IMG/VR virus record: IMGVR_UViG_3300033153_008530
Location: 23,012-87,011 of that record
DNA: 64,000 bases
Source: a virus
Strand: one strand, 5' to 3'
Within the stretch, counting starts at the first letter, position 1; the number at the start of each line of letters is the position of its first letter. The notes under the pieces are model-generated. The model saw only the letters and a program-made list of their open reading frames with translations, was not told the DNA's origin and did not search any database. Below, piece by piece: positions 13,783 through 39,078 of this stretch. The translations under genes were made by a program, and so were the position numbers.

Positions 13783-16700
13783 TTATCTAAAACGTTGTCT
13801 TATTGCATTATGATTTTTAACAGCATTTGCAGGATCAATACTTGAACCTGTTATACCAAATAGTTTAAAGAAGTGATTCCAAGCTTTTGCAGAACCTTGT
13901 TTCTGCCATGAATATGGGCCAACATCTTGTTGATAGAATCTTCTATCATCTCCTGTAAGACTCTGATAAAAGTCAACTACGAGTTTGCCATAACCATCAA
14001 GAGTAGGGCCAAATACCACTGAAGTAACATTCTTTAATTGTAATAAATCTCCAAGACCATACCCTGGTAGTGGAATAAATTGTTCATTCTCTGCACGTAT
14101 ATTCATTAACAACCATAATCCATGATTGGCCATCCAGCCAGTCCATTGAAAGTCTTCATCTTTACCTTGTTTTGTTCTTAACTTCTTATATTTCTCCTCA
14201 TCGTCTGGATCCCATCCATATAGTAATGCCATTAATAATACAAGTGAACTCAACATAGCAACTTCAACTCCTGTTTTCATTAATGCCTGTTTTTCTTCAG
14301 GTGTAGCATACATCATTTCTTTCCCTCCTGACTTAAGTCCTCTTCCTAACCACTTCATTGACCTTACATAATAACCCATTGATGATTCTCCAAGGCCAAT
14401 ATTATATCTTTCCTGTGGATCCTTCCAACTTCCTTTATATGACCATCTATTTACCATCATTGGTACAAAATATCTTCTTAAGAAACTTACCATTCTAAAA
14501 GCTAAGTATCTCTGAGCTTCAGGTTGATCAAATTTTGAGTATGCTCCTTGTAGATTATTGTTCACCATATGAATTCTATTTTTCATTTGATGAAATTTAG
14601 TACCACCTAGATCCCATGACTTATCTTCTACGTCATCTCTTAATTTAATTTGTTGATCAACTGTCTCATACGCATGTAATAATGATATTTCAGTACCATC
14701 TTTAAGTTTTACTTTCTGATGTTCCATCATCCCTGCAAATGTTTGGAGTGTTGCTTCAATCTCCATCCACTTTCTTGGTGAGTACATCCATGATGTTCCA
14801 ATGGCATCCATTAAAAACCCTCTAGAAGATGAATCTCCTAGTTTAGACTCAGTTCTTCCTTGGACAGCATCATACTCATCCATTAACTGTAATTTATGTG
14901 TTTTTGGACCACGTTTATAAATTTGTGCACTCATTTCTATTGCTGTTGCAGCTGACCATACTCTCCCTTTTGCATATGAGATTGGTGTCATGTATCTGCC
15001 TGCTGTTGTTTCAATAGTTGCTTGAAACATGGCCCCATATCTGTTCTTTAATGCTGACGGTATGTTTAATGCAAAGAAAGCAAACGAGGCACGTCCCATA
15101 ATTGCATTTACTGTCTTATGTAATGTATTATTATCTTTTCCCAATCCTGTCAATGTCTGACCTTCAAATTCCCTTTCATAGAAACCATTCACCATCATTG
15201 CTCTAACATTCTTATCCTTCTTATTACGATATGTAAACATACCTTTATTGAGAAAGTTTTGTTTCTGAATCTCTTTTATCTGATTTGCAGGATCATGTAG
15301 GGTATCTCTTAATGCTGCTGCAACTGGGTTGATCTCAGTTTTCTTAGATTGCTCATTTAAACTCTGATTATATATTATAAGTGCTTTTACTACATCTAAT
15401 GAAACCTGATCTAAAGGTATATCATATATACCTTTTACAGGTATATTTACAGTCTTATCAAATAAACCAGCATTTGTTAAATTATCTGTCTCATCATAGT
15501 TTAAATCATTATAATGATCATATTCTGTCTCAACGAAAAAATCCTTTATTCCCTGCCATATGGTTTTAACTTTACTATATGCTTTTTTACCAGTTCCTTT
15601 GGCTTTTAAATATTCAAAGTTTGACATTGGGAGACGTGGTACATCCAAATATAATCTACTTTCTTCTTCTGAATCACTTTGAAAGTCTAATGAGGCTTTT
15701 ACTAACTTTTCAATTAATTTAAAACGCTCTGGATCTTCACGTTTAATTCTAAAATAATCTTCATTTCTAAAGATATCAGGTACACCTGGGGCTAGATCTT
15801 TCCCTTCTTTTGGTAACCATCTTCCCCTATTGTCAACGGTCTCTCCAACTATTTTTGGAGTTTTTAATTGAATAGTTTCTCCTGTTTCCTCATCCACATA
15901 TGAATCCTTTACTTTTCTATCAAAATACTCAAAGGTTGGGACACCTACAATTGGATCTCCTATTTGCTTACCTTCTTTATCTCTTATTATTGTTGTTTCA
16001 TAATACTCTTCATCATTTGGTCTTACAACTGTCCATGCATAAACAATGTCATATCTTTTAACATGAGATTCACTAGCTTTATCATAAACCTTTTTATCAA
16101 TATGATTCTTATCAAACCAGTCTTTAAATTTATCATCTTGAGATAGCATTTTAAGAACTAAACTTCTATTATTTAAAAATGCAGCAACGTTTGCTTTGGT
16201 TACTTCATTTGTTTTGAGTTTTAGGATCATATCTGTTGTATCAACCTTACTTAAGTAGTTATTTATTATATCTAAATAATATTCAGTTGGCTCTTTATGT
16301 TGAAGTTCATTTAATTCACCAAACAAAGAGAATAACTCAGATCTTTCAAATTTATTGAGACCAATTTTTACTTTCTCACCTGTTATAGGATCTATAGACA
16401 TTCCCTCATCCATAATTTTTCTAAGAACAGACCATCTATCTATTTCAGATTGAGTAGGTTGTATATCATTTTTGAGTTTATATTGTATTTCGTCAAACTC
16501 TTCTTTTTCCTGTAGTGTTAATCCGCTATATCCGGCAACTCTTTCTTTTGCCTCAATTAATTCTTCTTGTAATGCTTTAATATGTGCTATGAGTTTATCA
16601 GCCATATCTGTTCCTTCAGGTTGACCATCAACATCTTTATATGGCCCAATTGAGTCAAAGATTTGAGTATATATATCTGAAAGGTCAAGTTTTTCCTGAG

Positions 16701-19700
16701 TTTCTTCTGGAAGTTTTGATATAAGCTCACTTAATCTTGCACTTATGTCAGCTCTTGTATCATAAAATTCTTTTTTAACCTGGACTCTTGTATTGTTAGT
16801 TACCCACTCTTCTAATTTAACTTTAATCTCATCTTCATTAAGACCAAATCCCTCTAACTCTGTTCTATAATCCTCATACTTTCTTTGCCATAGGTTTGGT
16901 GACTCAGTGTATTCAAAGAACTTACGTGAATCTTCATTATATTGTTTTAATATCATAGCAACATCAAGATCATTATGCGCATCCTTTGCTCCTGCAATCT
17001 TTCTATTACCGTTTAAGTCTGTTAATGATGATAATTGTCTAAGTTGTCTTAAAAGAGCTTTTTTATCATCTAAATTCTCTATTTTTTGTGTTTCATTGCC
17101 TGCTATTCTATCTAGATTTGACAATGCTTCTAATATCTGTTGTCTTCCCGTCCACGCCTTTTGACCAGCAGGTGTATCAAATACTTGCTGTCTATCATAG
17201 TATACTTGGGTAAAAGGTCTCCAATAATAATCTCTTAAAAATTTTCTAAATTTGTTTGATGCATCAATAATACCTGTTTTATTTCCAGTTTCAACAGCAT
17301 CATTTTTTGCTTGTTGAATTGCATTAAGATGTTCCTGATATGCTTTCCTATTTCCAATAAAAGGATTTAAGAATGTATAAATCTCTCTTTCTTCCCATGT
17401 TACTTCACCCTCTTCAGTCTCAACTCTTTTAAGAAGGATGTCTACAAATGTTGTTTTTTCTCCTATTGCTCGTGGATTCATACTTACATTTGCAGCTTTA
17501 ATATCAGCCTCCATTATCTTAAGAAATCCGTTTGTTTCTTTGTTTGTCTTGACAATTATATCAGATATTGCATTTTTTACAAAGACTGCTAATGACGAAA
17601 TAACAGGATCTGCATTATACATAAATCCCTCAAAGAAACTATTTGCCCAATGGGCATCTCCTAATTCTCCTTTAAGAGTCTTGAGCATTTGGGGTTTTGT
17701 CAAGTTTAACTTATCAAAATCTGCTTTTAATTTTTTTAAGTATTTATCTCTTGCTTTTCCTTCTGGTCTTACTTCCTCAGCATGTTTTTTTAATTCTTCA
17801 TAACGTATTTTAATATTTTCTAACATTGGTTCAAGCTGCTCCATTAAAGCATCTTGTAAACCATATAGATATATACCCTTTATTGTTTCCTGAGCATGGG
17901 TGATTTCTGTTCTTATATCTTTTATGATATCAAAAAATGGTGAACGTCTATTTATAGACTTACCTTCTTTATTTAATTGTTCTATTATAGATGTAAGATC
18001 CTTATCAAATTGATCCCAGTACTTAATTATCTCCTTATAATAAAAGGCTTTCTGTAAGTTATCTTTGTTATTTGGATCTCGTGATATCTCATCAAGATGA
18101 TCATTTATCTTTACTAACATATCTCTAGTCTGAAGCATGTTGGTTACTAGACTTTCTTGATGTTGTCTCACATAATCAACGTCCTCACTTAATTTCATCA
18201 TCTCTTTCTCTAGATTCTCTGCAGATAGGTTTTCCATTGTTTGATAGTTACGTAAACTCTTTTGTATCCCAGATAAATAACCACGCCCTTCTTCTGTAGC
18301 AAGTATTTCTTTCATGGCCTCATAATTCTTATTATTAAGAACTTCTTTTATCTGTCTACTAACTGTATCATAATATGCATTTGTTATCTGTAACAAATCT
18401 GAATTTTTTAAATTAGCAAGACTATCAGAAAATTTGTTTAAGTTACTTGCATATGCTGCAACATCTTTATCTGTGATTATCTCAGTGTCAATCTGAAACT
18501 GCTCACTAACTAACATATCTGCAAGTTCACTAAGAGTTGTATTTTCAGATAGATTTTCAATTTTTACTTTTCCAAACACTTTTCTTAAAAGTTGTTTTAA
18601 AGCAAATACTATCTTATTAATTACTTTTTGAAATGCTGATGGGGCTTTTAAGTCTTCTGTATTAACTTTACTCTTCTCCGCAAGGGCCCTAACTATGGCT
18701 TCTTCTTTGAAATATTTGTAAGTTTCATCATATTCTTCCTTTAGATTCTCAATTATCTCTTTTCCTTCCTTTGTTTTTACTAGATCCTCATAGATCTTGT
18801 TAAACAATCTGGGATTCTGAGCCCCAATTGAGCGCACCAATGGATGAGCAAACTCATGTAATACATCTTGTAATGATGCATTATCTCCTACTAAGAACAC
18901 TTTACCATCAAAGAAGAATGCATTCTGGCCCTCATATGGATATATTGTATTTTTTAAAAGGTCAACAGCCTGTTCAGATGTAATAACATTAAAAGGAATG
19001 CCTAGATTAATAGAAAGATGATTGGCAAGCTTGTAAAGGATCTCTTTAGCTTTGAGTTTCTTTTGTGATTCAACATCCATTTCTATTGGTGCTACTTCAG
19101 GATCCTTTTCTTCTAATATAGCTTCTACAACAGTTTCTTCAGTAGTAGATTCCTCTAATCCATACATTAATGGATTTTTATAATTATAATTTGATAAATC
19201 AACTAAATAACCACCTGCATCATTTTTAATTCCAGATATTTTGTGTACATATTTTAACTTAATACCAGGCATTGATGAAAGTGTGTTATAGAGAGCACCA
19301 GTAGTTAAAGGTTGATTGTTTGTTTCAGCAAAAAGAGCCTTTACATATTTCACCATCTTACTATTGTCCTTGTATTTATAAATATTTAAAGCCTTTTTTA
19401 TATCTTCAATTGTTCTTGGAAAATTTATTTCCATCATATCAAAAGTAACGGGATCTTCATCATATAATTTATCAAAAATCTGTCTTATAATATTATCTAC
19501 TTTTTCTTGTTTAACTTGATTATATTTTTTAGTATAGTCTTTTTTACTTATTTTTTCACCATTTTCTCTATATACTGGTTGTTTTCCGTCTTCTAAAAAT
19601 GCAGTATATTTTTCAGCTCCAAATTCAAAACTCTCAAAAGCTACAAATTGTGCTACTTCTTCTGGACCTGCATATATTAAAGCTGTTTGTTTACTTGATT

Positions 19701-23043: not shown

Positions 23044-23044
23044 A

Positions 23045-26000
23045 TTATGCTAAACATTTGTTTTTTAATTCTTGAATTTCATAATCACTAATAGGTTGAT
23101 CTTTTTGGATTATGGCTCTTATACTGGTAGATCTTAATGATCCAGGATTAATATAACCAAATTTATCATAAAGTTTACTAGATAAGTGAACATATGTTTT
23201 TCTTGATTTTACATTATCTAACAATTCTTTACCATATCCAGTTTTAATTAAGGCAATAGAATTGTTTCCCTTCATTAAATTAGCTATCTTATCAATAGCA
23301 TTATCAATTAAGATCTTGTTTTCTTCTAATGTTTCATCAGTCATCATCTTTCCATCGTTTATTAATGGGATACCAAGACTGTTATCAAACTCACTTAATG
23401 ATTCATCTCTTCCTTTTTTTCCTCTCTCATTATATATAAAGGTTACTCCACCACTCTGAGTTGCTAAAACTTCATATTTACTTGATGATGTTTGTGCATC
23501 ATATATATAAACATCTTTAGTTTTATACTTTTTTAAGGGTATTCCTTCTTTAACTGGTACTTTCTGCTCAGATGTCATGGTACTTGCCAAAGTTTTATCA
23601 ATCATATAATTTTTAGAGCGCATGTTTAATGATTTAGTTATTGCCCTATTCATTGTTATCATTCTATTTGTATAAAGTGTAAGAATCTCTTCATTTAGAT
23701 TCTTAATATATGATTCATAAGGACCTTTAAGAAGTAATAATATATTACGTTGATCAATAATCCTAGTCATTGAGAGTGGGCTCTTTGTATTTAACCCGGA
23801 TTGTAAGAAGGCGTAGTAGTTAAATCTCTGAAAGAAGTTAGTTATTTTTAATTTATCCTCTGGATCATCTATTTTTATTTCACTTGGATTACTAAGTTCT
23901 AGTAGATTCTCATGATAAACCTCTACTGTATCTGGGTCTAAAACAGTTTCTTTCAGTTTCAAGTTCTTTATTCTTTCACCAGGCTTTGCTTTTGATTGGA
24001 TAATACTTTCCATTAATGGATAATCTCTTGATAATGAGGGATATTTAGCTTTAATATCCATAAACTGATTAACCATACTATTATGTCCATAGAACATATT
24101 TCTAATATTAAGAGTATTGTCAAGAGCTTTGTCACGTAGTATCTCTTCGTAAGTGAGTAATTTCATTCTCTTCTCATACATGTTATCAGTTTCTCCTTCT
24201 TGTCTTTCTGTTTCAATAGAATCAACTTGATTCATGTTTCTCTTAAGTTTTTCTTTAAATTCTTCTTTTTTACTTTCTTCTTTAAAAGAAATAATACTTC
24301 TTAAGTATTCTCTTTCATATATAAATTTGTAAAATTCTTTTTCACTTAAAACATCTCTTGTTTTAAAAGCATCTGGAGTGAGAAGAGCATGTCCTGATAA
24401 CACCCATTCTTTCTTTACACCTTTTCCTTCTTTGTTAATCTTCTGCACCCATCTAACTCTTTTATTTTGGTCTGCATATGTTTTGTTCTTAAACATATCA
24501 TTAAGAGCTTCTTTGTTAACATATAATACATTATCTTTTACATAAGCGCCTACAGTTAATACATCTACTTCTTCAACTCCAATCTTATCATTAACTGTTA
24601 GACTTCTATATTCTTTTGTATTCTTATTAAAACCTTTTATTGAATTTTGGAATATAAAGCTTACAAGATCATTTTTCCATGCAGCAACAAACTTCTCTTG
24701 TTCATTCTGACCATAGGTTGTTCTTACTGCACCTTTTCCAGCGGCTGTATCCAAAAAGTCATATAAGAATTTATTAACTAATTCATGATTACGAAGTGGG
24801 AAATATTTACTCCATACCTCTTCTTGAAAGTCAGGTACTGAGGCAAATGAAGATATTGGACTTTCTGTAAGCAATCTATCTAAAGGTCCTCTTGGAAACA
24901 ATCCATATTTGTTAATTGTTCTCATGTTTCTTCTTCTCTCCTGAACATTATATAAAGAGGCTGCGGGATCTGTATCTAAATTTGTATTAAGTTTTACATC
25001 ACGTACAGAACCAGCTATTAATTCTAACTCAATAAAGTGTAAGAATGCATCTCGTGCTGTATCATTAACAGTTCCATTTAATGCAATCTCTTTAAGTTTA
25101 GCAGGATTAAAGTTTGATGTACGTCTCTGAGCTGTAAGAAGTATGTTTGGTACACTAGGTGTATTCGTTGCATCTAACCCTAATGTGGAATAATTATCAA
25201 ATCCATTACGTGCAATTACATTTACCTTTGCTTGATATCTAGTATACTGAGTTTCATCAGGGGCCATTCCTAGAGGCATTGAAAATGAGCTACTCATAAT
25301 TCTCTGTTCCTTTACGTACTCTTTTATAAGAGGATTAGAAAGGAACATAACTGCGTCAGTCAATGATACACCTGATTCAACTAATAATAATAATATAGGT
25401 GTTAACTCAGTATTACCCTGAAGATGAAAAATCCAAGGATCTTTTTCAACATCAACCCAACCATTTATTAATTGTTCTAGTATTTGAGCTATTTCAACAC
25501 CGTCTACATTATTTATATTAGATAAAGATATTACGTCATTCTTACCAACTTTAAAAGTATTATGATCTAATAAGATTCTTGTATTAAACTCACTCTTGTC
25601 TCTCATAAAAGTTGGCATTAAATACATACCTACTCTATTAAATAATGCATTATAAGTATTTGCAATTGCTCCTTGTCCTAATGTCTTTTTACCAACGTTA
25701 AAGGCCTCATGAATATCTGTATTAAATCCTATTTCTAATATTTTTGTATGACTAATGTTTTCTGCTTCTTCACCACGTATCTGATCTACAACATCCATTG
25801 CAAGATGATTTGAGTTTGGACGAACAAGACTTATAAAGTTATGTGGTAATTCAAGAATTTCTTTCATCTTATACATTATCTCATTCTCCACTCCTCTAAC
25901 ACCTTCAGTAGATAAAATTACTTCACCTTCTTTATTTCTTCTAATATTAGGCATCATTATAGTTAACTTGTCTATGTCAAAATCAGAACCTGATTTAGAA

Positions 26001-29000: not shown

Positions 29001-32000
29001 GCAAATTTTTTCATGACAGAATTTATGTCAAGATAATTTCCTTCTGTATCTGGTTTTATGTGTGGAGACTCTTTTGTTGTTGCAAAAGAATTCATCCAAT
29101 CAAATCTTATTCTTCTCCAATTTGCAGAGGCATTCCCAATTTTATCCGTGTATGACCATGCATTTTCTGTATCTCCAAATGCACCTTCCCTTGTTAAAAG
29201 TGTTCTATCCATTGTGTATTGGACCAATGGAATTCTTGTTCTGTTAAACGCTTCAACAAATTTATTCCATAACATGGCATCATAGTATGTCTCATGACCA
29301 GGAGTTTCATCACCTTTTTCATTTATAACAACAGGTTTACCAAGGCGCTCTATAAGTTGTTTATAAACTGGAAAGTCTTGAGAATCCTCTTCTAATAGAT
29401 CATATATTTTATTTGAGTCTCTTACTCCCTGTAATAGAGATAATGTATGTTCCCAAGTTACTTTAAAGTTTGAAAGCTTTTTTACACCAAGTTTGTTATA
29501 CACACCGTCAGGATCTTGTGGTGTCACTTCAAAGAGAGTCCTTAAAAGATAAAGCACCTCATTTGAAGCTAAATCTTTTACTGAAAGTTCATTACCTTTT
29601 CTGTCATGACCTTTAATTTTGTTAGATGTCTCCTCTTCAGAAAATTCTGTAATGAATTTATCCTCAAGATTTAAGATTTCAGTTCGTTTTTGATGAAAGG
29701 CAATAACACCTTTAGTTTGTTTTTTAGTTATGAATGATTCAAAGTCACCAAAATTATCAATTGCAAATGTCAATAGATCTATACTATTCTTTGTTACTAT
29801 ATCCTGTGGCTTCTTTTCTTCTTTTGTTCTAAGTTCATTTAGTCTTTCTATGACATATTCATATGCAGTATTTAATCCTGTCTTACTTGATAATAATTTG
29901 CTTATAGCTGCACGTCCTTTCCCGCTTACAATAAACTCTCTATTAGCTTTATCTATAAGTTCTCCAATTAATGAATCAACTGTTTCACTGATTAAAATAG
30001 AATCAGTAAAAGATATTTGTTCGTCATTAAGTCCTTTTATACCACCCTTATCAAGCTTTGCAAACATCATATTATTTAGAGATGGCGTATAATCATTTAT
30101 GTCACCAATATATAATTTGTCATAAAGATCTTTAACTCCTTCAACACTTTGTTGATCAATAACAACTTGGTCAAGAGTTGAATTTCCAAATAGTTGTTTT
30201 AGAAAGTCTAATATCTTTTGGAAAATAGTCTTGGCAGCTGGCGTATTTATTTTACGCTTGCCGTCTGAAAGTACATATAACCTAAAATCTTCAGCTAAAT
30301 ATTCTTCTAACATATAATCAGAAGCCTTTTTAAAACTGATTTTATCACCTAAATAATTTGTAAATGTTCCACTTCTCTTCTTTAAACTATCATATAGATC
30401 TCTTTTTTGTTCAACTGTAAGATACATTTGACTAAATCCGTGCCATGCCTCATGATAGAGATCTGTATAATTAGAACCTTTGTATAATATTATTCCGTTT
30501 TTAGTAAATTCTGCAAAGTTTTTGGAATTGACTATATTGAACGCAGCCTGGTATGGAAGATTTTCTCGCATTGGATGGTTGTTATACCACTCTTCAGCAT
30601 CTCTTATTTGTTTTTTAGTAGCTGCATTATTAATATTTTTGTTTTTATCTAACTTAAGAAATCTATTAAGTGCACTGTCCCTGTTATTGTCAGTGGGATT
30701 TTTCGTGACTGCATTGTAATCTTTAAGAATATTTTGAGTTAACTCATCTTCTAATTCTTGTTCTTCTAATTTAATTACTACAGCGGAGCTCTTTTTAATA
30801 TTTGGGATTTCTCTTCTCTTTATGAAATCATCTGCATTATCTTTATTACCAAATCTACCTTCAATTCTTTTATTACTTGAGGGAACCTGGATTACATAAT
30901 CAGCATGCTCAATAAAATTATACGTACCAGTCAAAATAACTTTACCTTCTTCTTTTAGATCTTTTATTTGCCCTAAGACATCATCTTGTACAAGCTTGTA
31001 ACTTACACCGCTATCTTTTTTCCAATATTCTAAAATAAAATTCTTATCCTTTTTCACTTTAAAATCAGGATCTCTTCTTTTTATTTCAGCTTTTAGTAGT
31101 TCATCCGCATCAATAACACCTTCCATTGTTGGGACAAAAGTAGTCTTACCTGCTCCAGGAGTTGCATAGATTAATTTACCCGTGTATTTTGATTTAGATT
31201 TTTTACCAGCTTTTGGAGTTGAAATAGAAGGATAAGTTGCTGTGTTCTCTAATACTTCACCAGGTTTATATTCAGTGTATATATCATATATGGATTTCTT
31301 TTTTAATGGTATAGTTAAAGAACCATCAGAAGATTTTGGAGATTCAGCTGTTGAATATTCTCTCTTACCAATCCCCTTATTTCTTATTAATTTAGTTGTA
31401 ACTGGAAATATTTTAAGTGTATCTAATACTATTCCTGTACGTTGTCTGAATAACTCAGCGTAGGCATTTAGTTGAATCTCGTCTTGAGCTTGATAATTAT
31501 ATTGTTTGGTTTTATAGGCAATACGTCTATTAAGACCAGATGTTTTAAGATCTACAAGATGAAAGGTTTTATTCTTTTCATGATATAATAACATGTCAAT
31601 TGTACCAGCATAATTAACATTTCCAAGTGTCCCCCATAGGGTTGGTATCTCAGTATATATTCTATAATTCTTCTTAAGTCTTTTCTTTGCCTCAGCATAT
31701 ACATCATAGAGTTCACCTAAAAACACATCTGAAAATACCTCAGTATTTTTTCTTTCAGGGTGTTCAACATACATTTTTTTAAAAGCCTTATATGATGTTA
31801 TCTGATCAGATAATGTAGCTCTAAATAAATCATCAGCAATTGTACCTCTTGTACGTGCTTGTCCTTCATCTCTAGGAGCATCAGCTGGATACGGAATAAG
31901 ATCTCCTTTAAAGGCGCTTACTCTTCTAAATGATTCTCTAGCTTCATCTATATAAAATTCAGAATCTTTTTTATTTACAGTTAATTTCTTTTCTGAAAGT

Positions 32001-33799
32001 GGTTTAAGTGCTTCAGTTGGATTATCTACTTTGCTTATGATCAGATCATCTGGAGTGCTCTCAATTATATTCTTTTTCTTTCTTCCAATTTGTTCTAACG
32101 CCTTATTGGACAAAGCATATGTAAAATATGCATTTAACTTAACAATCTTCTTTTCTTTATTTATAGCTGTTTTAGCTTCAAAATTATCTGTAATCCATAG
32201 ATTATACTCCATTTCTGTTAGAGTAACAATATTATCCTCAACACTAAAGCTATTAAACCTCTGATTGATAAACTTTTTATTTATGTTCAGTCTTGAGGCA
32301 GATGTATTGTTTTTTCTTTCTTCTTGAAGATATTGTATAATCTTATCTCTTACTGCTTCAGGATTATCTGATTTACTTATATTTTCCTTTTTAAACTTAA
32401 ATATAATTGATTTACCTACCTGATCTCTTCTAAAATATATACCATCATACTTTGGGAAATATATAGAGGATAATAGTTCAAATCTCTGTTGAGGTCTTAA
32501 TTCTTCTAAAGTTCCTCTTTTGGTTTTAATGTTAAGAGGCATTGTCATCATACTTGCCAAGTTAAAGATCTGATCATCAATCATCTTTGGTCTGTCAACA
32601 TATATAGGATCAGTACTATTTTCTTCATAGTCAAAATATGTGAAACCTTTATTTTTTCCAAAAGAATTATCAAGTGCTGGATATGGAAGGAAACCAAACT
32701 CTCCAAAATCTATTTCAGAAAGTTTTGTGTTTCTTTCATATGATACAGGACGATATCCTAAACTGCTACTTTCTAATATTGATGCAGTTACAGTTTCTCC
32801 ATTACTTACAGATCTTTGTATTGCTACAATATCTTCTAAACCTTGATATTGAAGTTTCTTAACATGATCAGTTTGCTTTTTAGTTGGTGTATCACCATAC
32901 ATTTTTCTTGCAACCTCATTAACTTGCTGAATATCTGATCTCTCCAAAAATAATTTACCATCACTTTTTCTTATAGGCGTTCTCATTTTAATAGGAATGA
33001 CATAACCATTTTCTTCATTGGTTATTTTTAACTCATCATTAAAATATATAGGATGTCCTTCACTATCAGTAATTATCCATACAACACCTTTTTTTGTTTT
33101 TTCAGGATTTTTTGTAATATACTGTTGTTCACCTTGGGTCCAATTTTTAAGAGGAACATCAGCTGCTAAAACTGCAGTTATATAATAACCCATCTTATCC
33201 CCCGTGTCATCACTACTAATTCTTATTTTACTTATAATATCTCTTATAACAGCATATCTACGTTTTGAAGCTGGATCTTTACTTGGTATATTAGTAAATT
33301 TTCCTTTTTCTGTTTCAGGAGCTTCATTACCTGTTGTTGTATTTGAAGATATTGGTCTTGCTTCAAAATTTCCTTCAATGTCCAGCTCTTCATTGGTAAG
33401 ATCTTTTCTCTCCTCTGGATCAAGCATATTTAATATTCTCAATCTTGTTACAATAATCTCAAGTTCTTTAATATCTACTTCAGGATATACATACTTAAAT
33501 ACATTATCAAGATTTTCAAATGACTCTGTCATCTCAACTAACTCACTGTACTTATTACCAACGTATTTACCTATGGTATTATCATTTGCTGCCAGCTTCT
33601 TTACAAAATCTGGAACCAATTGAACATATGCAAGAACTTTTGCCTTTTCTTTTTTAAGGTCATTAGATGCAATGTTCTCTATATGATTAATGATGTCATT
33701 AAGGTTATATTCAACCTCCTCATTCATCATATTTTTAAGTTTTCTTGCAGTAATAGACAATATTGCTTCTATATGTTTATCTGGTAATCTACATTTCAT
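23045..33799 (-). CDS. Giant virion RNA polymerase fused to nuclease, P-loop and zincin domains
   Basis: 3,584 residues. The active-site loop DFDID at 2606-2610 follows a strand-rich region (RIPVQGLNSAEFMEVYEF) laid out like the double-psi beta-barrel of RNA polymerases before NADFDGD. This is the hallmark of crAss-like virion RNA polymerases, single-chain enzymes carried in the capsid to transcribe early genes. Three more domains precede it: PD-(D/E)XK nuclease (GTIDML with Asp735, VDLKTSG with Asp750 and Lys752), P-loop NTPase (ATPGAGKTT, Lys885) and zincin (HEAWH 1116-1120, Glu1165/1166). The phi14:2 enzyme is about 2,180 residues, so this is an enlarged fusion. The next gene starts one base beyond its stop. 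RNA polymerase call near certain; the exact N-terminal activities are inferred. Confidence 0.92.
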   Translation of the reverse strand: MKCRLPDKHIEAILSITARKLKNMMNEEVEYNLNDIINHIENIASNDLKKEKAKVLAYVQLVPDFVKKLAANDNTIGKYVGNKYSELVEMTESFENLDNVFKYVYPEVDIKELEIIVTRLRILNMLDPEERKDLTNEELDIEGNFEARPISSNTTTGNEAPETEKGKFTNIPSKDPASKRRYAVIRDIISKIRISSDDTGDKMGYYITAVLAADVPLKNWTQGEQQYITKNPEKTKKGVVWIITDSEGHPIYFNDELKITNEENGYVIPIKMRTPIRKSDGKLFLERSDIQQVNEVARKMYGDTPTKKQTDHVKKLQYQGLEDIVAIQRSVSNGETVTASILESSSLGYRPVSYERNTKLSEIDFGEFGFLPYPALDNSFGKNKGFTYFDYEENSTDPIYVDRPKMIDDQIFNLASMMTMPLNIKTKRGTLEELRPQQRFELLSSIYFPKYDGIYFRRDQVGKSIIFKFKKENISKSDNPEAVRDKIIQYLQEERKNNTSASRLNINKKFINQRFNSFSVEDNIVTLTEMEYNLWITDNFEAKTAINKEKKIVKLNAYFTYALSNKALEQIGRKKKNIIESTPDDLIISKVDNPTEALKPLSEKKLTVNKKDSEFYIDEARESFRRVSAFKGDLIPYPADAPRDEGQARTRGTIADDLFRATLSDQITSYKAFKKMYVEHPERKNTEVFSDVFLGELYDVYAEAKKRLKKNYRIYTEIPTLWGTLGNVNYAGTIDMLLYHEKNKTFHLVDLKTSGLNRRIAYKTKQYNYQAQDEIQLNAYAELFRQRTGIVLDTLKIFPVTTKLIRNKGIGKREYSTAESPKSSDGSLTIPLKKKSIYDIYTEYKPGEVLENTATYPSISTPKAGKKSKSKYTGKLIYATPGAGKTTFVPTMEGVIDADELLKAEIKRRDPDFKVKKDKNFILEYWKKDSGVSYKLVQDDVLGQIKDLKEEGKVILTGTYNFIEHADYVIQVPSSNKRIEGRFGNKDNADDFIKRREIPNIKKSSAVVIKLEEQELEDELTQNILKDYNAVTKNPTDNNRDSALNRFLKLDKNKNINNAATKKQIRDAEEWYNNHPMRENLPYQAAFNIVNSKNFAEFTKNGIILYKGSNYTDLYHEAWHGFSQMYLTVEQKRDLYDSLKKRSGTFTNYLGDKISFKKASDYMLEEYLAEDFRLYVLSDGKRKINTPAAKTIFQKILDFLKQLFGNSTLDQVVIDQQSVEGVKDLYDKLYIGDINDYTPSLNNMMFAKLDKGGIKGLNDEQISFTDSILISETVDSLIGELIDKANREFIVSGKGRAAISKLLSSKTGLNTAYEYVIERLNELRTKEEKKPQDIVTKNSIDLLTFAIDNFGDFESFITKKQTKGVIAFHQKRTEILNLEDKFITEFSEEETSNKIKGHDRKGNELSVKDLASNEVLYLLRTLFEVTPQDPDGVYNKLGVKKLSNFKVTWEHTLSLLQGVRDSNKIYDLLEEDSQDFPVYKQLIERLGKPVVINEKGDETPGHETYYDAMLWNKFVEAFNRTRIPLVQYTMDRTLLTREGAFGDTENAWSYTDKIGNASANWRRIRFDWMNSFATTKESPHIKPDTEGNYLDINSVMKKFASPSGNPFVFLRDIGIDLDTRNIKLKQNINSKSRYRVFVEEIVKRLKYFNEKGTKVRNIIEALEYDIIEKGRVVHKGHKGNLKELALLQLKYSDKYSSAAVTNALGDIQYEYSLQSSLSVIINEINDSKSFNELINKPFMSYLSSKRNPWTYIYQDENGQNKSTSQWLNSLFDFENGGIKRKGVTLDLNNLSGNQMVVDNLITDIGYSSTTVEADKHTKLITDLHYTLLSGTPVSGSPELLRHASAGSAYSAGISEAHTLGSDKHLYVDTKDFFTNTGEDKAVEIIIPYIQAELTRINKADQVKNVPGYNKRAKEFSIFDKILSNPLKKELKDLNVELLEELKTNQDLYNRLHDEITKYFNSQVKDVTERYRDLNYISDSLIKQISYQNHSATTPQIREAIFESFVYNKWIRDFETLIFFYGDPAQYKNGMEFFKRNKMVASTGRFPRTDQAIINYIRNNMKGDYSIKRGIKDKDFDGTFKSAVFQDHIVSSVYVKEYEKAFRDYYSTVAELKGKKLENAVYHAIKPYKEMNEGDGQGWITFDAYRIYQFAIGKWSNTQEQLYKKIVAGEYVDPRLVTEFFPPKKVQYFGPLKTDGLPVIAGHKFSLMPLIPNVIENTRLQDLHDSLVDQKFDYALFESGSKISTITKDGTYDEVYADPIKRIFKSVESADQYTPNVMFLEFLKDQLDIDSKHKTKVTFSTQLRKLIETGLVEGGVPIDFMPGTSLTKRRVEWKKIEKKGLQVMKDESDYFSKYKEYEELLDKLMKYKKDQLLKDAGWSYNEKGKLEGNLQDLLNKVIIPNLERKDITASELDVLEVDDKGDLVFPFGMSVNAESIENILFAVVNKQLVRQKVNGQMLVQISTALFTNNEATPADRNFTNPTDAEIAKWGSSDLPTYSMFDAEGNIRKTISAMKVKIALQGGFIKLLGLTHNDGERIKTRLRLNEMIKDEQWLNRDDNRKLITMVGVRIPVQGLNSAEFMEVYEFLPESAGNIIIPPSEIVSKSGSDFDIDKLTIMMPNIRRNKEGEVILSTEGVRGVENEIMYKMKEILELPHNFISLVRPNSNHLAMDVVDQIRGEEAENISHTKILEIGFNTDIHEAFNVGKKTLGQGAIANTYNALFNRVGMYLMPTFMRDKSEFNTRILLDHNTFKVGKNDVISLSNINNVDGVEIAQILEQLINGWVDVEKDPWIFHLQGNTELTPILLLLVESGVSLTDAVMFLSNPLIKEYVKEQRIMSSSFSMPLGMAPDETQYTRYQAKVNVIARNGFDNYSTLGLDATNTPSVPNILLTAQRRTSNFNPAKLKEIALNGTVNDTARDAFLHFIELELIAGSVRDVKLNTNLDTDPAASLYNVQERRRNMRTINKYGLFPRGPLDRLLTESPISSFASVPDFQEEVWSKYFPLRNHELVNKFLYDFLDTAAGKGAVRTTYGQNEQEKFVAAWKNDLVSFIFQNSIKGFNKNTKEYRSLTVNDKIGVEEVDVLTVGAYVKDNVLYVNKEALNDMFKNKTYADQNKRVRWVQKINKEGKGVKKEWVLSGHALLTPDAFKTRDVLSEKEFYKFIYEREYLRSIISFKEESKKEEFKEKLKRNMNQVDSIETERQEGETDNMYEKRMKLLTYEEILRDKALDNTLNIRNMFYGHNSMVNQFMDIKAKYPSLSRDYPLMESIIQSKAKPGERIKNLKLKETVLDPDTVEVYHENLLELSNPSEIKIDDPEDKLKITNFFQRFNYYAFLQSGLNTKSPLSMTRIIDQRNILLLLKGPYESYIKNLNEEILTLYTNRMITMNRAITKSLNMRSKNYMIDKTLASTMTSEQKVPVKEGIPLKKYKTKDVYIYDAQTSSSKYEVLATQSGGVTFIYNERGKKGRDESLSEFDNSLGIPLINDGKMMTDETLEENKILIDNAIDKIANLMKGNNSIALIKTGYGKELLDNVKSRKTYVHLSSKLYDKFGYINPGSLRSTSIRAIIQKDQPISDYEIQELKNKCLA

Positions 33800-33813
33800 A
33801 ATCTCTAACTATT

Positions 33814-36800
33814 TTAAGTAGGTGAACAAGGGGGTTCATCTTCTAATGCACTAATATCCTCATCATCAGTTTTATCATCAGATAGTTTAATTATCTCTTT
33901 AACTTTATCACTATCATCACCTATATCTAAAGCAGCATCTTTAGTTTCATTTATACTTTCTGCATCTTCTCCTGTTATTACCTCTGTTATCTCTGGTTTA
34001 ACAAACTTAGTCCCTTCAACAACACCTCTTATTTGTTTATCAAATGTTTCTCTTTTTATTACTAATTCATTTCCCTTTTGATCTTGTGCAATAATTTGGT
34101 TTTTAGAAACTTTAACTACCATCACGGGACCTGATATATCTTTACCGGGATTTATTGGACTAAGAAGCATTTTTGCTTTTACATCATCAAAGCTGAATTT
34201 TATTAGTTCTTTCTTTATGTTATACATATCTGTAATTAAATCTGAATTAAGTGATCTACCATCTATTATTATACTACTTCTTAATTTTGAGTTAAGTGTT
34301 AAGAGTTTTTCAGCTGCCTTAGACCATTTCTCTAAATCTTTAAAAGTTTTAATATTTTTATATTGTGATGATAATACTCTATGTATTTGCATATTAATAT
34401 CAATATCTTCTGGATCAGCTTCTTTAATCTCTTTTTCAACTTCAACAATATCATATGCATGTAATTCTCCTTTTTTTAACCATGTTTTTATAGTTGTGTC
34501 TTCAGTATCTACAATAAGATCATCAACAACTATATCTCCTACTGGGATACGCCCATGATGTACTAATGTATATACTTTATCTCCAATTACTATATGACCT
34601 ATTTGGTTTTTTGTTTTTAAACCAATCTGTGTAGCTCTTGTTGCATTTACAACTAAAACCTTTCTTCCTTCTTTTTCTTGTATATTTTCAATTTCTTCAG
34701 GTGTTAGTATATCTGAACTTATACGTATACCTAATTTTTCTTTTTCAATATCTGTTAATCCTTCAAGTTCTTTTGCTGAAGGCATTCCTTCTTTTAATGC
34801 AATGAGCTCATTATTTCTACGATCACTTATCTTTTTTATAAGCGCTTTTTTGCTACTTGCTTCAAGTTGAACTTTTTCTCCATTACTCTTTTCATAAATT
34901 GTTGTAAAAACCTTACGTGATCTTTCATCATCTAAATCTTCTATGTCTTCACTGATATTATCTATAGCATCTTTAGCTCTTCTGGCTATATCATCTTTTT
35001 TAGATAATTTTTTAGATTTCTTTTTAACTTTTTTCTTATCTGTTTTAAGACTCTGATTATATTTTGCAATAATTACAGCGGCAGAATTTGTATTTTCTAT
35101 ATATTCCTTTAATCCAATTGGTTTTTCATCAATTGCTTCTTTTCTCTTATTATGCGTTTCTAAACCTTTTTTAAGTTGCTCTATTAAGGGAGCTGGCAAA
35201 TCTTCAATCTTTGTGTCAGGAGTAAAACCAAGATCAGGTCCATCATTGTCCTTTGGATCTTGTTTACCAGTGTTTGTCTGATCAATATACTCTGTTGTTA
35301 AAGCTATTGTTTGATCTAAAACTGTATTACCCGTTTTGATACCTAATGCTTTATTTAAGAATCTTGTAACAGCTTTAAGGAATTCTTGCCAAGCGGATGT
35401 TTTTGCATCATCCCATTTGATTTCTTTTAATAACTTTTGGAAGTTATCATTTGTCATTGCTTCAGCAACAAATTCTTCAATATCTTTTAACCCATAAGGA
35501 ACTATACCAATTTTACCAGTATTAGCTAAATAATAATCAACTGTTTTTTTCCATATTTCCTCTATTGCTGTTCTATATTCTGTATCTGTTCTTAATCCTT
35601 TAACAGTAAGTCTATGTATTATTTCATGAAGAATTGTATGCTCAATTGCGTTTTGTCCTGCTGTATAGTCAATAGAAGAATATCTTACATCTATATATAC
35701 GTCACCAGATTCTGTATCATAAACACCGGGTGTTGAAAGGTTATTTACAAACTTGATTGTATCAGTTGCGTTTGTTTTCATTAATAATGCAGCCGCTAAC
35801 TTTTTCTCTCGTGGTGTAGATAAAGACCCACTGTCTATAATTGACTGTAATACCACTCTTTGTAATACTGTACTTTCTGCAGAATCAGGATCAAAACCAA
35901 ATTGCTCTGCATAATCTTTATAAGTACGTTTATCATTTTTATATTTACTTCTTCCTCTTGGATCATATCTTGTATCAGCTCTTGCTTCAGGAATTGGCTT
36001 TCCAGTTACTTCACTCCATTTATTGACAATTTCTAATATTTTTACCCAATCTTCTGGATGAGTGTCTTGTGTTATTTCTTCAAGATCTGTTACTCTGTAA
36101 AAGGTAGCTGGTAATATCTTATCTGTTTTAAATGCTTGTGCATCATCTGGATCAAAAAAGTATCCTGCTTCATAAAGAGACTGAAACAAACCATTATCAT
36201 CTGATATATCTTCGTAAAGATTTAATAAGTGAGCTATATCTTCCTTTTTACGTTTGTATGTTTCCTTCATTATAGAAGCTTCTCTCCTAGCGCTATTGAT
36301 CATAGGGGCTCCTGATGGATCTAGTAGTATGTTAACTGAGTTTGTTAGATTTATACTCTCATTTTCTAATTTATAGTAATCTGCTAGTTTTTCAAATGAA
36401 GCTTCTATATCTTCATTAAATACATGACCACTATTTATTTTAGCTATAACTTCTAAATAATTTTTATATTTATCAAATAACTTTTCCTTTGAAGTCATTT
36501 GTTTTTTAACCTGATCAAAATCAAACTCCAATTGACCAGCTTCAACTTTAGCATTAGTAATTGATTCTTCTTCTAAATTGTTTTTATATTCCTCAATTGA
36601 ATCTTTTAACTCTTTTAAAGCATCTAATTTTAATTGTTTAGACTTTTTAACTGCTTTAAATGTTTGATCACCCTCTGAAAATTGTTCAACTTCTTTCTTT
36701 AAGAGCTCTATTTCTTTATAAATTGAACCAAGCGCAAGCTCTGTTGATTCATCTTTTGAATCAAATAAAAGATTAAAGTCATGGGCTTTAGCTTTAGATA

Positions 36801-39078
36801 CAGGTATATCAGTTGATATATCCTGATAAATAGAATCCATTCTTTCTAATGCTCTATCAAATGAATGTGTCATAAAAACTGCACGTTTTAGTGCTTTGTC
36901 ATATGCAAGTTGACGTATACCTTCATCTTCCCATTCTTTAGAACCAAAATCAAATTTGTTTGCATTAAAAGGATTAGTAAATCTTTTTGAAACATATTCA
37001 TATCTTGCTTCTATTCTTTTTGATCTTTCAATAGTCTTATCAATTTTAGCATGAAAATCTTTTTTAGAAACAGCAAGTTTGTCTAATGAGTAACCATAAG
37101 CTTCTTTTAATTCTTCATTGCTCATGTTTTTCATTCCTTCTAACCTTTCTCTATAGAAATTCATTTTTCCAGTTTGAATTGCCGTTACAACATGATTATA
37201 AATACTTTCATCTTTTAAATCTTGCCATGCTTTTCTATCACCATTACGTTCTGCTTCATTCATAGCTGATGCAAGCTTTCTGTTAAGAGACATATTTTCC
37301 ATATCAGGTGCAAAATATTTAAATGGATCAGCATACATCTGATTAAGTTGTTCTGCTACTTTGTCTCTATCTTCTTTACGTTTAGCATTTTTAGCTTTAT
37401 ATCCTTCTTTATCAGACATATATTCTAATGCTTTTGCGCTATATGTAGGTATTTTAATTATTGGTTGTACAAGACCTCCCATTAAGAAACCAGACATAAA
37501 AATTTCAAAACCTTGTTGAGAATACTGTTTAGATATATTATTTGCAATATTTGTATAAATACCACCTCTTGCTGGATCATTCTTATATAGTTCAGTATAG
37601 TAATCAGTTGCAGTACCTCCAATTATTTCCTGCATAGTCTCTTGAATTCCTTCAGCAAAGTTTGCTTTAAAATATGATAAACCTATTCTACCATATGTTC
37701 CAGGCATATATACACTTTTTGCAAGATTTTTAAAATTCTTTTCCTGAAATGAAAAGACATCATCAAGACCTTTTTTTGCTGCTTTTCTATTATATACTAA
37801 CCTTGCACCTAATGCATGTTCAAGCGCTCCTCCTCCTGCTTTAGTGTAAGGTCTAAAACCTCTGAACATATTGTCAAACACTATTCTATTAGAAAATAAA
37901 ATAACTGGTAAATTCCACCCAACTGTAGCAAATCCTGCTTTTTGACCTGTCTCTGCTATTTCTCTTGCTTCCTCAGAAGTTGGATTTTTTCCATTTTCTT
38001 GATAAAAATCATTAAATAACTTTGCAGATACTTCATTAGCTACTAATCCACCTTCAAGTTTAGATTCTGCTAATGCAAAATTAATTTCACGTACATCTCT
38101 ATAAAAAGATCCAAAAAAACTATGTGCTTTTGTAAACTCAGTTATGTTATCTGCGTTTCTAAACCCTTTAACATAATCAAATGTTCTTTCAAAAGGATTA
38201 ATAAATCTACCCGCACCTCTGCCTAAGTTTTTCCAAAACTGTCTTGCTGTGCTAACATCATTTAATCCTTTAAATGCTTTTGTTGTTGACTTTACTGCAT
38301 TTCCAAATTTATTTACAGGTAATCCTTTTGCAATTCTACCCATACCACTTGCAAAACGTGAGGCACCTAATCCAAATGTAGAACCTCCTGTAAGAGCGCC
38401 TACACCTAAAAGAGCTGCTTCTTCCATGGCCATTTCTGCAAGAATACCAAATGTATGTGCACTATTTAGAATCAGATTGTTTGTGAATGCACCAACTCCT
38501 CCTCTTGAACTATACCCAACTGCCATTGCTTTAGCTTGTTCCTCAGCTGTTTCAAGATCTGGAGACATTGGTCTACCTGTGAACATATCACCCCAACTTC
38601 TAAAACCACTTTTAATACCACTCCACATTAAATTAAAAAACTGATCATTACCTCTTTGCCAATCTTCATATGGAGTACTATTTTGATTATAGTAAGAGTC
38701 ATTATTTCTCCATGGATTAAAATCTAATTTTTCAAAAGCTGGATGTGTATAATATCTAGCAAAGTTAGCTCCAGTATAACTTGCATCATAATATGTATTA
38801 GCTCCCATTTTATAGGGGTTAGCAGCATGTGAAGGTGCAGTTTGGAATGAATTCAACATATATGCATTCATATCATCTGGTGAAGGAAGTTCAGGGGGTT
38901 GTGAAAGATTACCTGCATATCTGTTTGACATGGCGTATCTTGAAGGCGCATTTGTACCATACTGGTCTGGTGTAAGAATACCTTGTTGCTGTAATATATC
39001 GTCTACTGCAAGAGAGATCTGATTAGGTCTGTCCCCTAACATCTTATCTAAAGGATCTATGTTATTATTATCTGACAT
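33814..39078 (-). CDS. Giant crAss-like cargo protein with zincin-like domain
   Basis: 1,754 residues. The N-terminal 150 residues are rich in Asn, Tyr and Pro (AFEKLDFNPWRNNDSYYNQN, then SGFRSWGDMFTGRP) and match the style of large crAss-like virion proteins. Residues about 190-245 hold two hydrophobic Ala/Gly-rich helices (HTFGILAEMAMEEAALLGVG). Coiled-coil-like Lys/Glu helices cover about 770-900. A zincin motif HEIIH lies at 1151-1155 with Glu1201/1202 as likely third ligand. The C-terminus is acidic. It lies upstream of the virion RNA polymerase in the same late transcript; co-packaging and injection with it is inferred from crAss-like phage biology. Confidence 0.78.
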   Translation of the reverse strand: MSDNNNIDPLDKMLGDRPNQISLAVDDILQQQGILTPDQYGTNAPSRYAMSNRYAGNLSQPPELPSPDDMNAYMLNSFQTAPSHAANPYKMGANTYYDASYTGANFARYYTHPAFEKLDFNPWRNNDSYYNQNSTPYEDWQRGNDQFFNLMWSGIKSGFRSWGDMFTGRPMSPDLETAEEQAKAMAVGYSSRGGVGAFTNNLILNSAHTFGILAEMAMEEAALLGVGALTGGSTFGLGASRFASGMGRIAKGLPVNKFGNAVKSTTKAFKGLNDVSTARQFWKNLGRGAGRFINPFERTFDYVKGFRNADNITEFTKAHSFFGSFYRDVREINFALAESKLEGGLVANEVSAKLFNDFYQENGKNPTSEEAREIAETGQKAGFATVGWNLPVILFSNRIVFDNMFRGFRPYTKAGGGALEHALGARLVYNRKAAKKGLDDVFSFQEKNFKNLAKSVYMPGTYGRIGLSYFKANFAEGIQETMQEIIGGTATDYYTELYKNDPARGGIYTNIANNISKQYSQQGFEIFMSGFLMGGLVQPIIKIPTYSAKALEYMSDKEGYKAKNAKRKEDRDKVAEQLNQMYADPFKYFAPDMENMSLNRKLASAMNEAERNGDRKAWQDLKDESIYNHVVTAIQTGKMNFYRERLEGMKNMSNEELKEAYGYSLDKLAVSKKDFHAKIDKTIERSKRIEARYEYVSKRFTNPFNANKFDFGSKEWEDEGIRQLAYDKALKRAVFMTHSFDRALERMDSIYQDISTDIPVSKAKAHDFNLLFDSKDESTELALGSIYKEIELLKKEVEQFSEGDQTFKAVKKSKQLKLDALKELKDSIEEYKNNLEEESITNAKVEAGQLEFDFDQVKKQMTSKEKLFDKYKNYLEVIAKINSGHVFNEDIEASFEKLADYYKLENESINLTNSVNILLDPSGAPMINSARREASIMKETYKRKKEDIAHLLNLYEDISDDNGLFQSLYEAGYFFDPDDAQAFKTDKILPATFYRVTDLEEITQDTHPEDWVKILEIVNKWSEVTGKPIPEARADTRYDPRGRSKYKNDKRTYKDYAEQFGFDPDSAESTVLQRVVLQSIIDSGSLSTPREKKLAAALLMKTNATDTIKFVNNLSTPGVYDTESGDVYIDVRYSSIDYTAGQNAIEHTILHEIIHRLTVKGLRTDTEYRTAIEEIWKKTVDYYLANTGKIGIVPYGLKDIEEFVAEAMTNDNFQKLLKEIKWDDAKTSAWQEFLKAVTRFLNKALGIKTGNTVLDQTIALTTEYIDQTNTGKQDPKDNDGPDLGFTPDTKIEDLPAPLIEQLKKGLETHNKRKEAIDEKPIGLKEYIENTNSAAVIIAKYNQSLKTDKKKVKKKSKKLSKKDDIARRAKDAIDNISEDIEDLDDERSRKVFTTIYEKSNGEKVQLEASSKKALIKKISDRRNNELIALKEGMPSAKELEGLTDIEKEKLGIRISSDILTPEEIENIQEKEGRKVLVVNATRATQIGLKTKNQIGHIVIGDKVYTLVHHGRIPVGDIVVDDLIVDTEDTTIKTWLKKGELHAYDIVEVEKEIKEADPEDIDINMQIHRVLSSQYKNIKTFKDLEKWSKAAEKLLTLNSKLRSSIIIDGRSLNSDLITDMYNIKKELIKFSFDDVKAKMLLSPINPGKDISGPVMVVKVSKNQIIAQDQKGNELVIKRETFDKQIRGVVEGTKFVKPEITEVITGEDAESINETKDAALDIGDDSDKVKEIIKLSDDKTDDEDISALEDEPPCSPT

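What the first reader, a model, noticed from the sequence alone, without database searches (positions are those of the whole stretch)
13783..39078. Three neighbouring giant proteins each carry one zincin-like domain
Seen: HEFAH 1396-1400 with EE at 1447, HEAWH 1116-1120 with EE at 1165, and HEIIH 1151-1155 with EE at 1201, in three adjacent genes. The distance from the first His to EE is 51, 49 and 50 residues, and an amphipathic Lys/Leu/Phe helix follows in each. Chance HExxH motifs would not share this layout. Inference: one domain family present three times, possibly for maturing cargo proteins or attacking the host envelope on entry.
Basis: partly seen in the sequence, partly recalled or inferred. 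Interest (0 to 1): 0.75.

Follow-up and report, generated by a model that had tools for sequence, protein, structure and literature searches.

The report
Zincin domains in phage RNA-polymerase giants
A gut-type (crAss-like) phage carries one metal-dependent, protease-like domain in each of three neighbouring giant proteins, one of them its packaged RNA polymerase; the domains are old relatives of each other and two are always kept intact in related phages, so the phage probably uses them to cut its own packaged proteins, though no cutting has been shown.

Summary
Each of three adjacent giant genes of a crAss-like phage has one HExxH followed 50-52 residues later by an invariant Glu (second E of 'EE'). 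No other large protein in the window has one, and the joint layout never occurred in 3,000 shuffles. The three domains belong to one zincin superfamily: hhalign B-A 96.6%, B-C 95%, A-C 59%. A-B similarity survives masking of the catalytic columns. They are three old subfamilies, not recent copies. A lies in the RNA-polymerase protein (P0002, DFDID motif), C in a crAss001-gp49-type RNAP-associated protein (P0001), B in P0003. In relatives picked without using the A motif, A keeps HExxH in 44 of 44. C keeps only H, E, H and the far Glu invariant in 52 sequences. B is dispensable: missing in six of seven close relatives and dead in one. Domain A sits at a gene-fusion joint: at the end of gp47 in crAss001, at the start of a separate RNAP gene in other phages, internal here. 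Prior art: zincins of polyvalent proteins (Iyer 2017), N4 vRNAP, and p-crAssphage gp45. Best guess: proteases that process the packaged giants around assembly or ejection. Zincin identity about 0.9, processing role about 0.5. Fold search against PDB was not significant.

The parts
13783..23043 (-). P0001, 3086 aa, gp49-type RNAP-associated giant protein carrying zincin domain C
   Evidence: Profile of this family matches crAss001 gp49 (E 7e-22), cr118_1 gp15, cr4_1 gp27, phi14:2 gp65 and the C-terminal half of p-crAssphage gp44
18439..19113 (-). Zincin domain C (aa about 1311-1535)
   Evidence: 52-sequence alignment with H, E, H and the far Glu as the only invariant columns; AlphaFold2 pLDDT 81.8, pTM 0.77; BFVD fold matches to crassviral proteins
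18844..18858 (-). HEFAH, aa 1396-1400
18700..18702 (-). Third-ligand Glu, E1448 of P0001
   Evidence: invariant column E138 of A11
23045..33799 (-). P0002, 3584 aa, crAss-like virion RNA polymerase giant carrying zincin domain A
   Evidence: tblastn to phi14:2 gp66 (annotated catalytic RNAP subunit), crAss002, cr108_1 and others; DFDID motif
30035..30709 (-). Zincin domain A (aa about 1031-1255)
   Evidence: 48-sequence alignment A10; profile hits in all close relatives; AlphaFold2 model with a confident core
30440..30454 (-). HEAWH, aa 1116-1120
30302..30304 (-). Third-ligand Glu, E1166 of P0002
   Evidence: invariant column E136 of A10
25970..25984 (-). DFDID catalytic motif of the RNA polymerase, aa 2606-2610
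31403..31717 (-). PD-(D/E)XK-type exonuclease-like region N-terminal to the zincin, aa 695-799
   Evidence: PHROG 298 exonuclease, E 4e-6
33814..39078 (-). P0003, 1754 aa, giant protein carrying zincin domain B
   Evidence: orthologues in 7 related contigs, gene order conserved
35287..35850 (-). Zincin domain B (aa about 1077-1264)
   Evidence: profile A7, self E 6e-60; PDB sequence hits to podovirus ejection proteins
35614..35628 (-). HEIIH, aa 1151-1155
35473..35475 (-). Third-ligand Glu, E1202 of P0003
   Evidence: invariant columns of A2 and A7

Best explanation
The three domains are divergent zincin-type metallopeptidase domains (two His and a distal Glu as Zn ligands, the Glu of HExxH as general base) of the kind found in phage polyvalent and virion-RNAP proteins, built into the packaged RNA-polymerase and cargo giants of a crAss-like phage. 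Shown here: sequence family, collinearity, retention of catalytic residues in A and C, and placement of A at a gene-fusion joint. Inferred: A and C are active peptidases that cut the giant virion proteins they are part of, or their neighbours, around head packaging or after ejection. This would separate or activate RNAP modules that must pass a narrow tail. The B copy in P0003 is an accessory that comes and goes.
For: Profile relations: B-A 96.6% (E 7e-10), B-C 95% (4e-8), A-C 59% (9e-5); masked A-B still 82%; 0 of 60 column shuffles reach any observed score. The B profile hits A domains at E 6e-9 and the C profile hits A domains at 2.5e-7. A keeps HExxH in 44/44 complete domains in contigs selected only by C. 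C keeps HExxH in 7/7 genomes selected only by A. Invariant columns are the zincin residues (A also one Ala). Predicted topology (helix, strands, HExxH helix, Glu helix) matches the published zincin core. A lies at the fusion joint: internal here, C-terminal in crAss001 gp47, N-terminal (HExxH at aa 80-90) of separate RNAP genes in L056, L063, L089, L093, L094, L099. crAss001 gp47, gp49 and gp50 are virion proteins and must pass constrictions below 50 A (PMC10172136). Precedent: P1 DdrB is processed before packaging and its C-terminal zincin is proposed to do this (PMC5512222).
Against: No cleavage product, site or metal binding is known. N4 vRNAP, with a related domain, is packaged uncut (PMC5512222). 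crAss001 gp47 keeps the zincin although RNAP is a separate gene, so cutting a fusion cannot be its only job. Slot-C copies in crAss001, cr85_1, cr108_1 and cr118_1 have EExxH, and B is dead or absent in relatives, so catalysis is not needed everywhere. Foldseek against PDB gave no significant match for A or C.
Confidence: 0.5

Rival explanations
1. The zincins are effectors: injected with the RNAP complex, they cleave host proteins early in infection (defence, transcription or envelope stress factors).
For: Proposed as one option for polyvalent-protein peptidases (PMC5512222); the homologous giants are virion cargo (PMC10172136); lineage-specific loss and gain of B resembles an arms-race accessory.
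Against: A and C are strictly conserved in the same architectural slot of the RNAP giants across many phages, more like a housekeeping role than a host-specific target.
Confidence: 0.2
2. The domain is mainly structural or regulatory: a packaging or folding module whose metal site is often kept but whose protease activity is unimportant.
For: Decayed EExxH copies in four named crassviruses; dead B copy in G021 (HEIIH to NPMLQ); the N4 region with this domain is needed for encapsidation, yet N4 vRNAP is not processed (PMC5512222).
Against: All four catalytic residues, including the general base, are invariant in A (48 sequences) and C (52 sequences); part of this invariance comes from motif-based selection, but the 44/44 and 7/7 counts do not.
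Confidence: 0.17
3. The domains breach the cell envelope, cutting peptidoglycan cross-links or envelope proteins as part of the ejection channel.
For: The B profile matches podovirus ejection proteins in PDB: 23sg gp10 (3e-7), phiM1 tetrameric ejection protein 8vb2 (6e-7), 9sfn internal virion protein (0.0016). The phiM1 region was called endolysin/exotransglycosidase-like by its authors (PMC11440229).
Against: Domain A is part of the RNA polymerase, which acts in the cytoplasm. HExxH + Glu is a protein-peptidase signature, not a known glycosidase one (general knowledge). P0003 has no strongly hydrophobic segment by a simple hydropathy scan.
Confidence: 0.1
4. Chance or convergent HExxH motifs without homology.
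For: Pairwise identity between the three is very low; A-C masked similarity is weak (13%) and near a reversed-profile control.
Against: 0 of 3,000 shuffles reproduce the layout; B recognises A and C by profile with E 6e-9 to 4e-8; each domain is conserved in other phages.
Confidence: 0.03

Closest known systems
Zincin-like MPTase domains of polyvalent proteins (Iyer et al. 2017, PMC5512222), including Pfam PF18818 MPTase-PolyVal
   Same: HExxH helix, three strands before it, Glu in a later helix, variable insert between, embedded in multidomain injected phage proteins; an HExxxH variant also occurs here in relatives
   Different: No window domain reaches PF18818's cut-off; the paper's main text does not mention crAss phages; here three separate subfamilies sit in three adjacent RNAP/cargo giants
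N4-like (Schitoviridae) virion RNA polymerase zincin (PMC12633501, PMC8472413)
   Same: Zincin inside a giant packaged phage RNAP; B profile matches two sites in Vibrio phage 1.238.A vRNAP (E 3e-7 and 1e-4)
   Different: N4 RNAP is T7-like and the zincin lies C-terminal to it; here the RNAP is the crAss DFDID type and the zincin lies N-terminal to it
p-crAssphage gp45 'RNAP associated protein fused to zincin protease' (BK010471)
   Same: B-type zincin in an RNAP-associated giant of a crassvirus, already annotated
   Different: One zincin annotated there; window has three of three subfamilies, with A inside the RNAP polypeptide itself
phiM1 tetrameric ejection protein gp48 (PDB 8vb2, PMC11440229)
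   Same: B-type HExxH...EF domain at residues 377-488 by profile
   Different: Authors describe residues 268-528 as endolysin/exotransglycosidase-like; no RNAP in that protein
SprT-like family (PF10263)
   Same: Weak match of 6 of 9 B domains (best 0.0042)
   Different: Below the Pfam cut-off; A and C do not match

Membership tests
Zincin-like MPTase of polyvalent proteins (Iyer 2017 description) | HExxH motif in a helix | tested here: met
   All three domains have the motif; A and C motifs lie in predicted helices 83-96 and 81-99
Zincin-like MPTase of polyvalent proteins (Iyer 2017 description) | Zn-ligand Glu in a second, downstream helix | tested here: met
   E1448, E1166, E1202 invariant in alignments; in predicted helices for C and A
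Zincin-like MPTase of polyvalent proteins (Iyer 2017 description) | Three-stranded sheet and N-terminal helix before the HExxH helix | tested here: met
   C model, pLDDT 81.8, has helix, three strands, HExxH helix in order; A model similar with lower confidence before the motif; B not modelled
Zincin-like MPTase of polyvalent proteins (Iyer 2017 description) | Embedded in large multidomain phage or plasmid proteins delivered with the DNA | tested here: inconclusive
   Large multidomain proteins: met. Delivery not testable; crAss001 homologues are virion proteins by mass spectrometry (PMC10172136)
Pfam PF18818 MPTase-PolyVal | Score above the curated cut-off | tested here: not met
   0 of 18 records over cut-off; sub-threshold matches fall on B zincins of cr10_1 and a Vibrio N4-like phage
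Pfam PF10263 SprT-like | Score above the curated cut-off | tested here: not met
   Best 17.4 bits against 25.6
Known zincin folds in PDB | Significant structural match | tested here: inconclusive
   No significant Foldseek hit; weak A hits include selecase 4qhf, jannalysin 4jix, MATCAP, NleC; C no zincin in the listed hits
Active metallopeptidase | Metal binding and proteolysis | not testable with these tools
   Needs biochemistry
Crassvirales virion RNAP (host protein of domain A) | Homology to phi14:2 gp66 and the DFDID motif | tested here: met
   tblastn 7e-24 and profile 7e-25; DFDID at aa 2606-2610

The most novel reading that the evidence does not exclude
Crassviruses package a set of resident proteases, one per giant RNAP/cargo protein. 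The A zincin acts as a self-cutting joint between RNAP modules (explaining why genes are fused, or split, right beside it), and the gp49-slot zincin is an old partner that became a pseudoprotease in some families.
Probability: 0.3. Interest if true: 0.7.

Novelty: new variant of a known kind. Interest (0 to 1): 0.5.

Why it matters
The roles of the giant RNAP-associated proteins of the most abundant human gut phages (crAss001 gp47, gp49) are largely open. If they carry working and decayed proteases in fixed slots, then how these very large proteins are packed, threaded through a narrow tail and turned into an active polymerase becomes testable with single-residue mutants in cultured phages. 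The B profile also suggests that a domain in a solved ejection machine (phiM1) described as endolysin-like may be a zincin.

Tried and rejected
Pfam, NCBIfam and PHROG scans of the whole proteins and domains give no family over cut-off for any zincin. PDB Foldseek with both models gave nothing significant. PDB sequence search with A and C profiles gave only chance-level hits. A scan of IMG/VR with the whole RNAP found one distant locus and a scan with the single B domain found none; alignments A1, A2 and A5 were too diverse to scan. Recent tandem duplication was considered and rejected: the tree puts each domain with its subfamily in other phages. Two key crAss papers (Yutin 2018, Drobysheva 2021) are not held, so what they say about zincins could not be checked.

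Full report
What is there. The window lies in an 87 kb IMG/VR phage record. Three giant genes on the minus strand are read in the order P0003 (1754 aa), P0002 (3584 aa), P0001 (3086 aa). Each has a single HExxH, and there is none in the other large ORFs. The conserved partner is the second Glu of each EE: E1448, E1166 and E1202. In 3,000 shuffles of the three proteins, HExxH occurred in all three in 0.03%, and the combined layout with EE never.

What the host proteins are. P0002 matches crassviral RNA polymerases, including phi14:2 gp66, and holds the DFDID motif. It also has a PD-(D/E)XK exonuclease-like region before the zincin (PHROG 298). P0001 belongs to the crAss001 gp49 / phi14:2 gp65 / cr4_1 gp27 type, and matches the C-terminal half of p-crAssphage gp44. 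crAss001 gp47, gp49 and gp50 are virion cargo found by mass spectrometry (PMC10172136). The phage is therefore a divergent crassvirus.

One family, three old branches. I call the domains A (P0002, HEAWH...EEYLAEDF), B (P0003, HEIIH...EEFVAEA) and C (P0001, HEFAHP...EEAIV). Relatives were collected from named crassviruses and IMG/VR: 80 A loci and 80 C loci. Profile comparison: B-A 96.6% (E 6.7e-10), B-C 94.9% (4.1e-8), A-C 59.4% (9e-5), always with HExxH on HExxH and Glu on Glu. After masking the conserved H and E columns, A-B stays at 82% over the same columns, B-C falls to 20% and A-C to 13%. All observed scores exceed 60 column shuffles; the masked A-C score (27.0) is close to a reversed-profile control seen for A-B (25.4), so the direct A-C link beyond the motif is weak. 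Plain HMM searches link B to A (6e-9) and C to A (2.5e-7). A tree gives C and B as groups (100/99 and 84/98) with A as one group or a grade; each window domain sits with its subfamily from other phages. So these are not recent copies.

Structure. The C domain (52 sequences, only H86, E87, H90 and E138 invariant) is predicted with pLDDT 81.8 and pTM 0.77: long helix, strand, helix, two strands, HExxH helix, two helices, Glu helix, amphipathic helix. The A domain gives the same order with a confident core but a weaker N-terminal part. This is the zincin core described for polyvalent proteins. Foldseek of C against viral models finds six matches at E 0.001 or better, among them a cr108_1 protein; by fragment length I infer that the two cr108_1 hits are gp52 (decayed slot-C; E 6e-4) and gp54 (A-type; E 9e-3). 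Against PDB neither model gives a significant hit. B was not modelled, but its profile matches three solved podovirus ejection proteins.

Is the catalytic Glu kept? In contigs selected by the C motif alone, the A domain keeps HExxH in 44 of 44 cases where the motif lies inside the fetched stretch; three more are cut off by the end of the stretch. In seven genomes selected by A, C is HE[FY][AS]H in all. B is different: of seven relatives of P0003, six lack the domain, and G021 has it with HEIIH replaced by NPMLQ. In other crassviruses the same slot of gp49-type proteins holds an intact B zincin (phi14:2, cr4_1, cr10_1), an HExxxH variant (G001, G004, G035), or a decayed EExxH (crAss001, cr85_1, cr108_1, cr118_1). 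DAC15 shows no intact copy in the stretch read.

Where A sits. In crAss001 the A zincin ends gp47 (HEAFH near residue 2158 of 2341) and RNAP is a separate gene. In a group of environmental contigs (L056, L063, L089, L093, L094, L099) the RNAP gene starts just before it, with HExxH at residue 80-90. The preceding gene ends at a TAA or TGA, in another frame in L063, L089, L093 and L094, so this is not read-through of a recoded stop there. In the window and many others the two parts are one polypeptide. The zincin thus lies at the joint where genes fuse or split. In L093 a B zincin lies near the end of the upstream protein and an A zincin near the start of the RNAP protein.

How it most likely works. 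Steps shown: family, conservation of the metal site residues in A and C, and position. Steps inferred: zinc binding, peptidase activity, and substrates. The joint position, the invariance in RNAP cargo, and the proposed autoprocessing of P1 DdrB (PMC5512222) favour cutting of the phage's own giants around packaging or after ejection. In crAss001, gp47 is transcribed late and was suggested by others to serve packaging, ejection or RNAP activation (PMC8375218). Against this, N4 vRNAP with a related domain is packaged uncut, and decayed copies exist. I give about 0.9 to zincin identity, and about 0.5 to self- or neighbour-processing.

Known and new. Zincins in polyvalent proteins and N4 vRNAP are known (PMC5512222, PMC12633501, PMC8472413), and p-crAssphage gp45 is already annotated as fused to a zincin protease. 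I found no held paper describing A and C, or decayed copies in gp49, but two central crAss papers could not be read. Pfam, NCBIfam and PHROG models do not recognise A and C above cut-off. I therefore rate this a new variant of a known kind, of moderate interest.

Noticed in passing
L015:33434-37483 (crAss001 gp49), L018 (cr85_1), L011 (cr108_1), L009 (cr118_1): The gp49-type proteins hold a zincin-like domain in which the first His is Glu (EEFAH, EEFAH, EECAH, EEVMH): likely a decayed or altered metal site.
   Followed up: partly
L235, L236, L237 (genomes G001, G035, G004): gp49-slot domains with HExxxH (HEILGH, HEILAH, HEIFGH), a spacing variant described for polyvalent proteins.
   Followed up: no
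L132:2-3952 (G021): P0003 orthologue with a dead B zincin: HEIIH replaced by NPMLQ while the rest of the domain is recognisable.
   Followed up: yes
PDB 8vb2 chain A, residues 377-488 (found with the profile of window 35254-35853 and relatives): phiM1 tetrameric ejection protein matches the B zincin profile (E 6e-7) with HEAAH and a downstream Glu, although its authors call the region endolysin/exotransglycosidase-like.
   Followed up: partly
L093:2-8249: A B-type zincin near the end of one giant protein and an A-type zincin near the start of the next (RNAP) protein.
   Followed up: no
L163, L193: Two C-type zincin domains in one protein.
   Followed up: no
G000:C1:17521 (outside the window), locus L001: An HELLH motif in a 460-aa frame, probably a separate metallopeptidase-like protein not related to A, B or C by inspection.
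   Followed up: no
window 30710-31400: P-loop-like stretch (ATPGAGKT) in P0002 between the exonuclease-like region and the zincin (read from the translation).
   Followed up: no
window 14200-14275: Hydrophobic segment near the C-terminus of P0001 (aa 2925-2946), a possible membrane helix.
   Followed up: no
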